Under the pieces are notes generated by a model that was given only the letters and a program-made list of their open reading frames with translations, did no database searches and was not told the origin of the DNA. A stretch of DNA of 64,000 bases from Haloactinopolyspora alba (lineage in GTDB: Bacteria; Actinomycetota; Actinomycetes; Jiangellales; Jiangellaceae). Made by a program: the position numbers and the translations under genes. The DNA is taken from assembly GCF_003014555.1 (NCBI RefSeq), contig NZ_PYGE01000001.1:496001-560000 (forward strand). The letters run 5' to 3'. Shown here piece after piece: positions 23,211 through 55,982 of this stretch (positions are counted from its first letter, which is position 1; each line of letters opens with the position of its first letter).

Positions 23211-24413
23211 TCACCCGGCCAGCTCACGCTCCAGCGGCGTACGGAACGTGGGCGTCACGGAAGCGGACTCCAACCTGGGCTGCAGCCGCGCGGCCGCACC
23301 CGCGACCGCTTCGGCAGCCTCGGTGCCGATGTCCTCGAGCAGCCGCCAGACGATCTCGTCGCCGCGCATGCCCCAGCCACCGACGACCCGGCCGTCCCAC
23401 CAGACGGTCGGTCCGATGTTGCCGTTGCGGTCGAACAGCGCGTCGCGATGTGCCCCCAGGAACCAGTCACGCCCCTGCCACCCCATCGGCGTCGGGTCGA
23501 GCGCCGGGAGCAGCGCCGCCGACGGCTCGACCCGCGGGTCCGGGTCGACGTCGTCGGCCAGGACGATGCCCGGTGTGCCGTCCAGATCGACCTCGACGGT
23601 GTCGAGCCGGGCGAGCGTCTTCCGGGTGGCGCCGAGCGTCCAGCCCGTCCACCACTGCAGGTCGGCCACGGTGCCCGGGCCGAACGCGCGCAACCACTGC
23701 CGCGCCAGCTCCGTGCGCGCTTCGTCCTCCGGCAGGGGCGGCAGGCCTTCCGGCCACAGCGCCCGGGCCGGCGCCCAGCGGTGTTGACGAGACTGCCAGG
23801 TGCCGGCGGGGCGCCCGCGCACGAGCCGGCCTTCGGCGCCCATGAGCGTCAGAACCCGGCTGGTGACGTTCTGCTTCGTGTCCCACTTCTTGTCCGTGGT
23901 CGGCAGCAGGGCTGTGCGCAGCCGCGGCTCGGCGGCGGCGACCTGGTTGGCCAGCGCCTCACCGCGTTCGAGCAGCACCCGTTCCGCCCCGTCCTCGACG
24001 TCGGTCAGCCAGGCGTCGGCGTCGCCGTCGATCTCGGGCTCGGTGGGGACGGTCCGCAACTCCTTGACCAGCCGACGCCGCAGCCGCTGCGCGACCTCGG
24101 CCGCGGCCCCCGCGTGCACGACCGGACCGGTGCCGGTGGGGACGACGAACATGGTGCGCCGCATGCCGAGCAGCTTCACCACCGAACGGTCCTCGTACAA
24201 CGCGTCCGACACGTCGGCGAGCGTCGCCGTCGGGTTCCGTGCCAGCACGGACAGATACACCGACGCCGGGTCGGTCGCGTGCAGCGCCACCACGGCATCG
24301 GCGACGTCCGGCACCGTCGGTTCGGCCGGCGCCGACGCGACCGGCCCGGCGGATGCCAGCCGGTGCCGTCGCATCAGGCGGGTCCGGCGCTGGTGAACGT
24401 CGATGGTCAACAC
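23211..24413 (-). CDS. Winged-helix DNA-binding domain protein (YcaQ/AlkX-like, HTH_42)
   Basis: 400 residues from GTG 24413. The family pattern is clear: RLAPxxPAxVVALHATDPASVYLSVLARNP, a YEDRSVVKLLGMRRTMFVV strand, and the C-terminal GWDGRVVGGWGMRGDEIVWRLL-like region split here as WWDGRVVGGWGM. Relatives such as YcaQ unhook interstrand DNA crosslinks and AlkZ is a DNA glycosylase; the catalytic QXQ motif of AlkZ-type proteins is not evident, so enzymatic activity is uncertain. It may simply be a DNA-binding protein. Convergent to OsmC. Confidence 0.75.
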   Translation of the reverse strand: MLTIDVHQRRTRLMRRHRLASAGPVASAPAEPTVPDVADAVVALHATDPASVYLSVLARNPTATLADVSDALYEDRSVVKLLGMRRTMFVVPTGTGPVVHAGAAAEVAQRLRRRLVKELRTVPTEPEIDGDADAWLTDVEDGAERVLLERGEALANQVAAAEPRLRTALLPTTDKKWDTKQNVTSRVLTLMGAEGRLVRGRPAGTWQSRQHRWAPARALWPEGLPPLPEDEARTELARQWLRAFGPGTVADLQWWTGWTLGATRKTLARLDTVEVDLDGTPGIVLADDVDPDPRVEPSAALLPALDPTPMGWQGRDWFLGAHRDALFDRNGNIGPTVWWDGRVVGGWGMRGDEIVWRLLEDIGTEAAEAVAGAAARLQPRLESASVTPTFRTPLERELAG

Positions 24414-24609
24414 ACGCTGATGCTGACACACGGCACCGACAAGCCGGAGTCTCAGGAACGATGACGTTTTCACAGCCGAATCGGGCGGACATTGTGCGCC
24501 GTGCCGGTAGTCGCGCGTGACAAATTCCGTCGATCATCAGAAAGGGTTGACAGCACCCGTAAAGTCTCTTCCGGAAAGTTCCTTCCCACTGGGCTATCGG
24601 GGGGTAGCC

Positions 24610-24795
24610 GTGAGTCACAACCGGACAACCACGGAAGAACGGCGCTACCGCGTCGAGCTGGCGGTCGTCATCGGAGTCGGCGTCGCTCTCGCGATCGTCG
24701 CCGTTGCGGCCGTCCTGACCATCAACCGCGCTCCGATCGAGGAGCAGGAGAACTTCCAGGGCCTGTCCACCGCGGTCTCGCACCTGACACCCTGA
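24610..24795 (+). CDS. Small single-pass membrane protein
   Basis: 61 residues from GTG 24610, preceded by a G-rich Shine-Dalgarno-like stretch. Short charged N-terminus (MSHNRTTTEERRYRVE), one hydrophobic helix AVVIGVGVALAIVAVAAVLTI, and a 24-residue extracellular tail. No family known. It ends only 11 bases before the inverted-repeat element at 24806, which may serve as its transcript end. Confidence 0.5.
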   Translation: MSHNRTTTEERRYRVELAVVIGVGVALAIVAVAAVLTINRAPIEEQENFQGLSTAVSHLTP

Positions 24796-24805
24796 CCTCC
24801 GCCGA

Positions 24806-25176
24806 GAATGACCACGTTCACCATGGAATTCCATGCGTCACCACCCGTACAGGCCTGGTGACGCGTGGAATCCCCTGGTGATGTGACCGCCGCATCAGCC
24901 GCTGGTCCGAGCGATCCCCCGTCGAGATCGATCGATCGGTTCCGCGCGTTCGGTGCGAGCCGCGGCGGGGCCATCGCCCGCCGACATGTCGATCACCGCC
25001 TCCGCACGAGCACTTCCCGACGCTGAACCGGTGCGTGTTCGTCCTCCACGGCCGGCATGCGAACGACGACATTGTCGATCGCATGCCCGGCGCGCCGCCA
25101 TCACCAGGAAATTCGGCGCATCACGAGGCCTGTACGGGTGGTGACGCATGGAATTCCATGGTGAACGTGATCATTC
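24806..25176. mobile_element. 371-bp palindromic element of two inverted hairpins (MITE/BIME-like)
   Basis: Left unit: arm 24819-24842 and arm 24857-24880 form an imperfect 24-bp stem around a 14-base loop. Right unit: arms 25102-25125 and 25140-25163 around the same loop reversed. The two units are inverted copies: 24806-24856 matches the complement of 25126-25176 with a single mismatch over 51 bases, and similarity weakens over the other arms. Each outer arm contains the 14-bp palindrome CATGGAATTCCATG. About 215 bp separate them and hold no recognisable gene. Such nested inverted hairpins are typical of non-autonomous MITE or REP/BIME elements moved in trans. No transposase or target duplication is visible. 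Confidence 0.7.
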
Positions 25177-25475: not shown

Positions 25476-26621
25476 TCACCACTCGGCGAAGGCGCCGTCC
25501 GGGTGCCGCCACACCGGTGAGCGCCACCGGTGCCCGGCGGCGTCGGCGCGCCGGACGGCGTCCTCGTCGATCCGGATACCCAACCCGGGACCCATCGGCC
25601 GCTCGACGTGCCCGTCGACGAAGTGGAACACCGCCGGATCGACGAGGTAGTCGAGCAGGTCGTTACCGACGTTGTAGTGGATACCCAGGCTCTGCTCCTG
25701 GATCAGGAAGTTCGGCGTCGCGAACGCGACCTGCAGGCTGGCGGCCAGCGCGATCGGGCCCAGCGGGCAGTGCGGCGCGAGCACCGCTCCGGACATCTCC
25801 GCCAGCGCGGCGATGCGGTGCACCTCGGAGATGCCGCCCGCGTGCGAGATGTCCGGCTGTACCACCGACACCCCGGCCTGCAGCGGCGCGGCGAACTCGC
25901 TGCGGTGGTAGCAACGCTCGCCGACGGCCACCGGCACCGAGCTGCACGCCACCAGCGACGCCAGGTGCCCGCCCAGGTCCGGCAGTACCGGCTCCTCGAC
26001 GAACAGTGGGTGCAGCGGCGCCATCTGCGGCAGCAGCCGTCGCGCGTTGGCCGCGGACACCCGGCCGTGGAAGTCGACGGCGACGTCGCGGTCGGCGCCG
26101 AGCACCTCCCGGGCGGCGGCCAGCCGGCGGAGCACCTCGTCGGTCTCGGCGCTGGTCGCGACGGGGGACATCGCGGCGCTGCCGTTCATCTTCACGGCGG
26201 TGAAGCCCTGCTCGATCTTCTCCGAGATCGTGTCGGCCACCTGGGCCGGTTCGTCGCCGCCGACCCAGGTGTACATGCGGACCCGGTCTCGCACGTGCCC
26301 GCCCAGCAGCGCGTGCACCGGGGCGCCGTAGTGGTGCCCGGCGATGTCCCACAACGCCTGGTCGATGCCGGCGACGGCGCTGGACAGGATCGGCCCGCCG
26401 CGGTAGAAGCCGCCCTTGGTGAGCACCTGCCAGTGATCCTCGATGCGCAGCGGGTCCTGACCGATCAGGTAGTCGGCCAGCTCGTGCACGGCCGCCCGCA
26501 CGGTGTCCGCGCGGCCCTCGACGATGGGCTCACCCCAGCCCACGAGGCCCTCGTCGGTGCTGATCCGGCAGAACAGCCACCGCGGTGCCACGGCGAACGT
26601 TTCGACGTCGACGATCTTCAT
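25476..26621 (-). CDS. dgoD: D-galactonate dehydratase (enolase superfamily, MR subgroup)
   Basis: 381 residues, the usual DgoD length. Family hallmarks: GWGEPIVEG near the start, LTKGGFYRGGPILSSAVAGIDQALWDI, metal ligands in VDFHGR (Asp), FVEEPVLP (Glu) and GER (Glu), and the catalytic His in VQPDISHAGGISEVHRIAALAE, with LAPHCPLGPI after it. DgoD converts D-galactonate to 2-keto-3-deoxygalactonate. It overlaps the upstream GntR gene by ATGA (26618-26621). With the alpha-galactosidase operon on the other side of the divergent promoter this suggests oxidative galactose catabolism. Related sugar-acid dehydratases cannot be excluded. Confidence 0.85.
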   Translation of the reverse strand: MKIVDVETFAVAPRWLFCRISTDEGLVGWGEPIVEGRADTVRAAVHELADYLIGQDPLRIEDHWQVLTKGGFYRGGPILSSAVAGIDQALWDIAGHHYGAPVHALLGGHVRDRVRMYTWVGGDEPAQVADTISEKIEQGFTAVKMNGSAAMSPVATSAETDEVLRRLAAAREVLGADRDVAVDFHGRVSAANARRLLPQMAPLHPLFVEEPVLPDLGGHLASLVACSSVPVAVGERCYHRSEFAAPLQAGVSVVQPDISHAGGISEVHRIAALAEMSGAVLAPHCPLGPIALAASLQVAFATPNFLIQEQSLGIHYNVGNDLLDYLVDPAVFHFVDGHVERPMGPGLGIRIDEDAVRRADAAGHRWRSPVWRHPDGAFAEW

Positions 26622-50984: not shown

Positions 50985-51165
50985 ACGTCACGGCAGGAAC
51001 ACCGGTGAGAGCGTCGCACGCGCTCGACTCCGGGGCGGTCCCGCCACTGTGACCGGGGAGCGGTCCTCGATCCACGACCGGCCACCGGGACGAGCCCGGG
51101 AAGGCCACGAGGACCCGCGACGATCCGGGAGCCAGGACACTGCCCTGGCGTCGTCCGCCGATCCG
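50985..51165 (+). ncRNA. Cobalamin riboswitch upstream of cobN
   Basis: Conserved core elements in order: GGCAGGAACACCGGTGAGA, CCCGCCACTGTGACCGGGGAG, the GCCACCGG and GGGAAGGCC pair, and the B12 box region AGCCAGGACACTGCC, ending in the GCCAGG...CCTGGC helix at about 51130-51148. The cobN start follows 27 bases later. B12 would repress cobN translation or transcription. Confidence 0.85.
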
Positions 51166-55668: not shown

Positions 55669-55777
55669 GGTGACCTCCTCGTGTCCTCCGTCGGTAATAC
55701 GCCGCGAACCGTCGCCGGGATTGCACGACGGCGGCGCGACGACGGGCCGGAAGGCACCGGCTGGTAGATTCGTCCGC

Positions 55778-55938
55778 GCCGTGGCGATACGGGAAGCCGG
55801 TGCGATACCGGCGCGGCCCTCGCCACTGTGATCGGGAGTCCCGGCCGTTCCCCTCGCGGGGAGCCACTGGGCAGCGGTGACGCTGCCTGGGAAGGCAGGC
55901 CGGTGACGCACGTCCCGTCAGCCAGGAGACCGGCCACG
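55778..55938 (+). ncRNA. Cobalamin riboswitch upstream of cobG
   Basis: Core elements: GGGAAGCCGGTGCGA, CTCGCCACTGTGATCGGGAG, GAGCCACTGGGCAGCGG, CTGGGAAGGCAGG and the B12 box GTCAGCCAGGAGACCGGCC. The cobG start follows about 45 bases later behind a GGAAGG site. Together with the cobN riboswitch this puts both B12 units under product control. Confidence 0.85.
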
Positions 55939-55982
55939 GCGCGAACAGCTGCGATTCCACGAGGTGATGGAAGGCGGTCGGC

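What the first reader, a model, noticed from the sequence alone, without database searches (positions are those of the whole stretch)
24806..25176. 371-bp nested inverted-repeat element with CATGGAATTCCATG palindromes
Two imperfect 24-bp hairpins are placed as mirror images, 51 of 51 positions but one matching between outer halves. The centre has no gene. This nested layout suggests a non-autonomous mobile or REP/BIME-type element not matching any family I know.
Basis: seen in the sequence. Interest (0 to 1): 0.65.

Follow-up and report, generated by a model that had tools for sequence, protein, structure and literature searches.

The report
Dispersed stop-codon palindrome, IS landing pad
The 371-base structure is two facing copies of a 79-base palindromic repeat that is scattered over a hundred times through this actinobacterium's genome, usually just behind the stop codon of a gene, and that several kinds of jumping gene use as a landing pad.

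Summary
The inverted repeats are real (50 of 51 outer positions, 71 of 78 overall), but the 371-bp composite is not a unit: it is two facing copies of one 79-nt imperfect palindrome, catalogued 114 times in this genome. Twelve of 22 Jiangellaceae genomes give 40 or more model matches, in genome-specific 'dialects'; 38 genomes outside the family gave none. (1) Position: in 80 of 114 copies the neighbouring gene's stop lies within -6 to +40 nt of the element's 5' end; in 22 the element's own TGA is the stop. (2) Mobility with homogenisation: empty sites exist in related species, without visible target duplication, while elements at nine shared sites are no more alike between species than random pairs (70.0 vs 69.3%; within genomes 80-85%). 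(3) Landing pad: 21 of 22 ends of an ISL3-like and an IS30-like IS found in this genome run into the element; an IS110-type IS does too. The inner stem covaries between genomes. No RAYT (Y1) transposase was found in 23 genomes, so the driver is unknown. Best reading: a REP-like repeat, larger than classical REPs and without their transposase. New variant of a known kind.

The parts
24806..24884 (+). element copy 1 (79 nt): conserved unpaired 5' end GAATGACCACGT, then imperfect hairpin
   Evidence: alignment A1 of 41 copies, fold, R1 match 105.8 bits
25098..25176 (-). element copy 2, facing copy 1; its conserved 5' end is at 25176
   Evidence: R1 match 90.1 bits
24822..24835 (.). CATGGAATTCCATG of copy 1; the central GGAATTCC is where the ISL3-like IS joins other copies in this genome
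25147..25160 (.). CATGGAATTCCATG of copy 2
24885..25097 (.). spacer between the copies; no gene called; the search with the 371 bp found no second copy of it
24517..24795 (+). short ORF (92 aa; my caller took 24610-24795 with a low score) whose TGA ends 10 nt before copy 1, a typical distance
25476..26621 (-). gene whose 3' end faces the 5' end of copy 2, but 299 nt away (one of the exceptions)

Best explanation
The feature is a facing pair of copies of a REP-like element: a 79-nt imperfect palindrome (near-perfect and 88 nt in the copies seen from G006 and G014) with a conserved single-stranded 5' end, RAATGAYCAYGTT, and a hairpin. SHOWN: it is dispersed; within my searches it is confined to Jiangellaceae; it mostly sits in sense orientation directly behind stop codons; sites occupied in one species are empty in relatives; it is homogenised within each genome; its inner stem keeps pairing by double changes between genomes; and it is an insertion site of three kinds of IS. 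INFERRED: (a) in mRNA it acts as a 3'-UTR hairpin behind the terminating ribosome (mRNA end protection or damping of translation, as reported for E. coli REPs close to a stop), and its TGA serves as a back-up stop; (b) copies spread by a machinery that is not RAYT and that I did not find, leaving no visible target duplication; (c) because these sites are harmless, ISL3-, IS30- and IS110-type elements have specialised on the palindrome.
For: Copies: 147 R1 matches in G000 among 150 scored of 4,544 candidates (some are the same copy on both strands), 114 catalogued. Sharp borders. Context, by my own simple gene caller: 88 of 114 have the 5'-side gene pointing at the element, 80 of 114 within -6..+40 nt, 22 use the element's TGA, and no called 5'-side gene runs further into it; convergent contexts (n=51) median gap 4 nt at the 5' end vs 40 at the 3' end, p=1.6e-7; co-directional 37 sense vs 15 antisense, p=0.003. 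Empty sites: 11 of 17 best-matching gene ends in G001; 10 of 11, 7 of 7 and 6 of 8 loci at three J. asiatica sites. Homogenisation: 9 shared sites, 70.0% vs 69.3%, permutation p 0.13. Covariation over 12 sequences: 9 of 20 pairs with double changes, 0 of 500 shuffles as high. IS joins: 21 of 22 ends of types A-D; IS families from fuller copies in relatives. Literature parallels.
Against: No transposase found, so mobility rests on empty sites, and loss cannot be excluded at any one of them. 34 of 114 copies lack a stop codon close to the 5' end; 9 lie between divergent genes. In G001 one gene (L160) does read into an element in another frame before stopping. Within G000 the stem shows no double change (0 of 15 pairs). 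The 12 sequences of the covariation test were picked by eye as well-formed copies. Nine pairs give the permutation test little power. The empty-site alignments hold 10-30 nt of unalignable sequence beside the element, so exact junctions are not fixed. Function on mRNA is untested.
Confidence: 0.8

Rival explanations
1. Classical REP/BIME: the element is a REP moved by a REP-associated tyrosine transposase (RAYT, Y1 HUH).
For: Copy number, palindrome with conserved unpaired 5' end, facing pairs, dialects, position near stops, no visible target duplication.
Against: No Y1_Tnp (PF01797) match at E<=0.001 in 23 genomes, 15 of them of this family, including single-contig G007 and G013; the same search rings in 5 of 14 control genomes. 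G016 and G020 were not in that search. No GTAG tag; 79 nt against 20-40.
Confidence: 0.1
2. Vertically inherited regulatory or terminator hairpin, not mobile.
For: Several sites are shared between species and even genera: 6 of 21 G001 loci, and some Jiangella loci; position behind stops.
Against: Empty sites in sister species; R1 matches range from 0 to 147 within one genus (R1 can miss dialects); sequence uniform within a genome and different between genomes; I see no T-run after the hairpin in the printed copies.
Confidence: 0.12
3. MITE of a DDE insertion sequence such as the ISL3-, IS30- or IS110-type elements found with it.
For: Those IS are adjacent in several genomes; fully palindromic copies in G006/G014 look like foldback elements.
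Against: The IS ends do not resemble the element's ends as I read them; the IS lie inside the element or at its edge, with target repeats of their own (GGAATTCC; NNAAATGA; CCT) read from the sequence. No target duplication seen around the element at 3 sites.
Confidence: 0.07
4. Protein-binding or DNA-uptake-like signal kept uniform by selection and recombination.
For: Genome-specific dialects at shared sites resemble uptake-sequence dialects (recalled).
Against: 79 nt is long for such a signal, copy number is low, and lineage-specific insertions are discrete.
Confidence: 0.1

Closest known systems
RAYT-associated REPs / BIMEs (Nunvar 2010, PMC2817692, abstract and passages read; GTAG and CGTC REPs, PMC3733652, passages read; REPINs, PMC3116915, search listing only)
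   Same: High copy, extragenic palindromes, inverted pairs, species-specific, near or overlapping stop codons (GTAG termini are reported often to supply a TAG stop), IS targets
   Different: 79-88 nt instead of 20-40; end RAATGAYCAYGTT and not GTAG/CGTC; no RAYT found; supplies TGA; an actinobacterial family
CGTC-tagged REPs (PMC3733652, passages read)
   Same: Reported apparently to lack a dedicated transposase
   Different: Different tag and size
Computed REPs of RepRanger (PMC12306157, passages read)
   Same: Hairpins near stops; its table lists REP predictions for three Actinomycetota genomes, so REP-like hairpins in actinobacteria as such are not new
   Different: Jiangella does not occur in the text; predicted hairpins there, not one homologous dispersed family with dialects
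ERIC/IRU and Correia-type small palindromic elements (recalled)
   Same: Around 100 nt, palindromic, intergenic
   Different: Sequences not compared here; target duplication described for some (recalled), none seen here
IS-targeted REPs (Tobes and Pareja 2006, PMC1525189, abstract and passages read)
   Same: Palindromic repeats as specific IS targets; IS110 the family most represented
   Different: It names IS3, IS110, IS4, IS256 and IS5; ISL3 does not occur in the text, IS30 only in the discussion of target binding and references. Here ISL3- and IS30-type IS join IS110 on one repeat

Membership tests
RAYT-associated REP | Y1 (HUH) RAYT gene in the genome, flanked by two inverted REPs | tested here: not met
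   PF01797: 0 of 23 genomes at E<=0.001 (15 of this family); 5 of 14 controls positive
RAYT-associated REP | GTAG or related tag at the foot of a 20-40 nt palindrome | tested here: not met
   5' end is RAATGAYCAYGTT, unit 79 nt
RAYT-associated REP | More than 100 dispersed, mostly extragenic copies | tested here: met
   114 catalogued; no called gene runs through the element
BIME | Regularly spaced repeats in alternating orientation | tested here: inconclusive
   Facing pairs of 191 or 202 nt recur in Jiangella (6 of the 11 pairs printed), but in G000 spacers vary from 145 nt (L117) to kilobases and most copies are single
MITE | Terminal inverted repeats with target-site duplication | tested here: not met
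   No duplication visible at 3 sites with empty counterparts; unalignable flanks limit precision
Intrinsic terminator | GC hairpin followed by a T-run | tested here: not met
   No T-run seen by eye in the printed copies; the terminator scan tool was not run
Known RNA family | Match to an Rfam model | tested here: not met
   Window and 4 element loci: only two cobalamin riboswitches at gathering threshold

The most novel reading that the evidence does not exclude
Jiangellaceae carry a superfamily of transposase-less palindromic repeats (79/88, about 72 and 60-61 nt units, sharing TGATC and hence a TGA near their ends) that are dispersed by a dedicated, non-RAYT machinery which aims at, or is tolerated only at, stop-codon sites and overwrites old copies, so that each species' set changes dialect together; ISL3-, IS30- and IS110-type elements have each evolved to use them as safe harbours.
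Probability: 0.35. Interest if true: 0.75.

Novelty: new variant of a known kind. Interest (0 to 1): 0.55.

Why it matters
Many REP elements are attributed to RAYT transposases. Here is an abundant REP-like system, with dialects, empty sites and a strong stop-codon address, in genomes where no RAYT was found. It makes testable whether another enzyme can disperse such palindromes, how copies at one site are rewritten into a new dialect, and why three unrelated IS families converge on one target. The address also bears on how hairpins behind stop codons affect translation in high-GC actinobacteria.

Tried and rejected
RAYT search, negative. Rfam, negative for the element. An IS carrying the element as its own ends: not seen in the IS types met here, which interrupt or abut the element. 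A driver gene shared by element neighbourhoods: all-against-all of 1,385 ORFs near elements, of which I looked by eye at the 45 largest clusters only; the ORF set holds out-of-frame ORFs and no family search was run on it; nothing transposase-like stood out except one small cluster from J. rhizosphaerae, G003 and G007 loci that I did not identify. First genome-contig scan with the G000 dialect found nothing. Short C-terminal fragments of the IS at contig ends gave no family hit; families were read from fuller copies in relatives. Integron attC was considered and dropped from recall. Of 12 J. asiatica sites queried, I aligned 3. Left out of the 114: ten weaker, partial or rearranged places, two degenerate places (L021 92, L034 2668), four places that I never fetched, and copies broken at contig ends. 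The query prepared (G001 flanks against G000) was not run, so empty sites were tested mainly in one direction.

Full report
WHAT IS THERE. Each arm folds into a hairpin, the left one far more stable than its shuffles (z -6.4), the right one less so (z -2.8). But a search of the genome with the whole 371 bp found the composite once and the 78-nt arm in dozens of other places. The unit is therefore the arm. An alignment of 41 copies shows a 79-nt element with sharp borders: 12 nt of conserved unpaired 5' end, RAATGAYCACGT, then an imperfect hairpin whose 5' strand is nearly invariant and whose 3' strand varies. A covariance model (R1) gave 147 matches in this genome, with 150 of 4,544 candidates scored; a few are one copy seen on both strands. 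I catalogued 114 copies and read their flanks, leaving out weaker, rearranged, unfetched or contig-end places (listed under Tried and rejected).

WHERE IT OCCURS. R1 matches in the 22 family genomes (thresholds 0.01 and 1e-4, at most 150 scored each): 102 to 147 in G000, G001, G003, G005, G009, G013, G014 and G020; 40 to 63 in G006, G007, G016 and G019; 12 and 9 in G011 and G004; 1 or 2 in G010, G012, G015 and G002 (the G002 match lacks the conserved ends); none in G008, G017, G018 and G021. R1 undercounts other dialects: G010 has 2 matches, yet 5 of 9 ISL3-type ends read there run into clear palindromes of this kind. Outside the family, 38 genomes had no blastn match and 4 of them none with R1. 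A scan of named species (84,980 genomes) with a Jiangella-dialect pattern found 73 stretches, all Jiangella: J. asiatica, rhizosphaerae, aurantiaca and ureilytica. Contig lengths identify G020 as J. asiatica and G016 as J. aurantiaca, so the family is Jiangellaceae. Copies read from G006 and G014 are near-perfect 88-nt palindromes with the conserved end on both sides, and Jiangella often has facing pairs of about 190-200 nt.

WHERE IT SITS. Gene context came from a simple codon-usage gene caller of my own, so single cases may be wrong. In 88 of 114 copies the gene on the element's 5' side points at it, and in 80 of 114 its stop codon lies between -6 and +40 nt of the element's first base. In 22 the TGA of RAATGAY is itself the gene's stop; no called 5'-side gene runs further in, though in G001 one gene (L160) reads on in another frame to a TAG. 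Between convergent genes (51 copies) the median gap is 4 nt at the 5' end and 40 at the 3' end (p=1.6e-7). Between co-directional genes the element is in sense orientation 37 times and antisense 15 times (p=0.003). Nine copies lie between divergent genes. In the window, copy 1 begins 10 nt after the TGA of a short ORF; copy 2 is an exception, 299 nt from the facing gene.

IT COMES AND GOES, AND IT IS REWRITTEN. Of the 22 genes that end on the element's TGA, 17 have a best-matching locus in G001: 6 carry an element there and 11 do not. Empty sites appear in other Jiangella at three J. asiatica sites: 10 of 11 loci, 7 of 7, and 6 of 8 (one occupied, one unclear); at two of the three sites the nearest relative, G013, carries an element of its own dialect. 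No target duplication is visible, but 10-30 nt beside the element do not align, so the junctions are not exact. At nine sites occupied in both G000 and G001 the two elements are 70.0% identical on average, hardly more than non-orthologous pairs (69.3%, permutation p 0.13, little power), while copies within a genome agree at 85% and 80%. The sites can be old; the sequence at them is genome-specific. In one shared case (L188 and its G001 counterpart) the element lies 18 nt behind the same ATCGAC in both, but G001 keeps a TAA there while G000 has lost it and ends on the element's TGA: the element can act as a back-up stop.

THE HAIRPIN IS KEPT BETWEEN SPECIES. Over 12 sequences from 11 genomes, 87% of cells pair and 9 of 20 pairs show changes on both sides; no measure was reached in 500 shuffles or by slid partners. 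The signal is in the inner stem (8 of 12 pairs); the outer stem adds one. I chose the 12 by eye as well-formed copies, which favours pairing. Within G000 alone no pair shows a double change (0 of 15).

IT IS AN IS LANDING PAD. The draft assembly breaks at IS copies, so contig ends show where they sit. I first saw the joins because R1 found elements near contig ends, then searched the genome with the IS ends themselves to remove that bias: one search lists 22 ends of types A-D in G000 (32 of 60 candidates scored). I read all 22, and 21 run into the element (A 4 of 5, B 5 of 5, C 6 of 6, D 6 of 6). The exception is the start of C18. Three type E ends also join it (C38, C3 to a shortened copy, and C32), but those were found through the element and say nothing about frequency. 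A and B are the two ends of one IS and abut GGAATTCC (one case GGAATTTCC), the palindrome in the element's middle, in either orientation, as an 8-bp duplication would give. C and D are the two ends of another; as I read the flanks they overlap by CCT in the element's centre. Fuller homologous copies in relatives name them: ISL3 (a broken copy in G020, 51.7 bits against a cut-off of 180) and IS30 (G013, 264 bits against 80). Type E is 75% identical over 89 nt to the end of an IS110 in G007 and related to one in G003 whose copy ends at an element. In G014 and G010, 12 of 23 ISL3-type ends read run into an element at its edge and the other 11 show TCATTTNN, the far side of an 8-bp NNAAATGA target. 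Against a fixed partnership: in G021 the ISL3-type IS sits in a plain CCAAATGA site, and neither the IS30 copies of G013 nor the IS110 copies of G007 lie in this element.

SISTER FAMILIES. The IS30 copies of G013 lie inside another palindrome, outer ends GTTGATCTTGGAG and CTCCAAGATCAAC, and IS110 copies of G007 (L126, L129) beside TTGATCATGGAG palindromes. The 13-mer GTTGATCWTGGAG is found 4 to 148 times per strand in the 12 Jiangella genomes, 0-4 elsewhere in the family and 0-1 outside it, with 0 everywhere for the reversed control. Units are 60-61 and 71-73 nt (12 distinct ones in the loci held).

MECHANISM. Shown: dispersal, position, empty sites, homogenisation, covariation, IS joins. Inferred: function as a hairpin behind the terminating ribosome. 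The parallel is E. coli, where REPs fewer than 16 nt from a stop are reported to down-regulate translation (as cited in PMC12306157, passages read; the same paper puts only about 11% of its predicted E. coli REPs that close), and GTAG REPs, whose ends are said often to supply a stop to flanking ORFs (PMC3733652, passages read). Unknown: the enzyme. RAYT genes are reported to be always flanked by REPs and proposed as their movers (PMC2817692, abstract and passages), but Y1_Tnp was absent from all 23 genomes searched, and no candidate stood out among genes beside elements (by eye).

IN PRINT? Searches for Jiangella with palindromic, Jiangellaceae with repeat, actinobacteria with REP terms and RAYT with related terms showed no description of this element in the listings; the J. 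gansuensis genome paper mentions palindromic repeats only for CRISPR in the passages found. This covers an open-access library only.

Noticed in passing
window 50994-51142 and 55765-55952 (+): Two cobalamin riboswitches (Rfam RF00174, 54.7 and 85 bits).
   Followed up: no
the 12 Jiangella genomes searched; L411 1501-1571 in the own genome: Further palindromic repeat families of 60-61 and 71-73 nt with ends GTTGATCATGGAG and GTTGATCTTGGAG, up to 148 exact ends per strand in one genome.
   Followed up: partly
window 23211 (3' end of the minus-strand gene 23211-24473); L160 1325-1403: The G001 counterpart of this gene ends in an element copy (reading into it to a TAG), while the site in the window is empty: an empty/occupied pair inside the window itself.
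   Followed up: partly
L117 2001-6965: Cluster of four elements among glycine-cleavage-like and MerR-like genes (names from reading the translations); J. asiatica L085 has elements beside related genes.
   Followed up: no
L390 (G020:C128 6647-9509): A broken ISL3-type copy flanked by two elements pointing away from it (flanks TCATTTCG and CGAAATGA), reminiscent of a transposase gene between two inverted REPs.
   Followed up: partly
L020 2984-3090: An element lies between a dnaJ-like and a 16S rRNA methyltransferase-like gene (read) that often form one operon (recalled), which argues against a strict terminator role.
   Followed up: no
G000:C18 start (L153, L380): The one IS end of 22 that is not joined to an element.
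   Followed up: no
G000:C3 start (L114): A type E IS end joined to a shortened element, in which the conserved 5' end faces itself around GGAATTCC.
   Followed up: no
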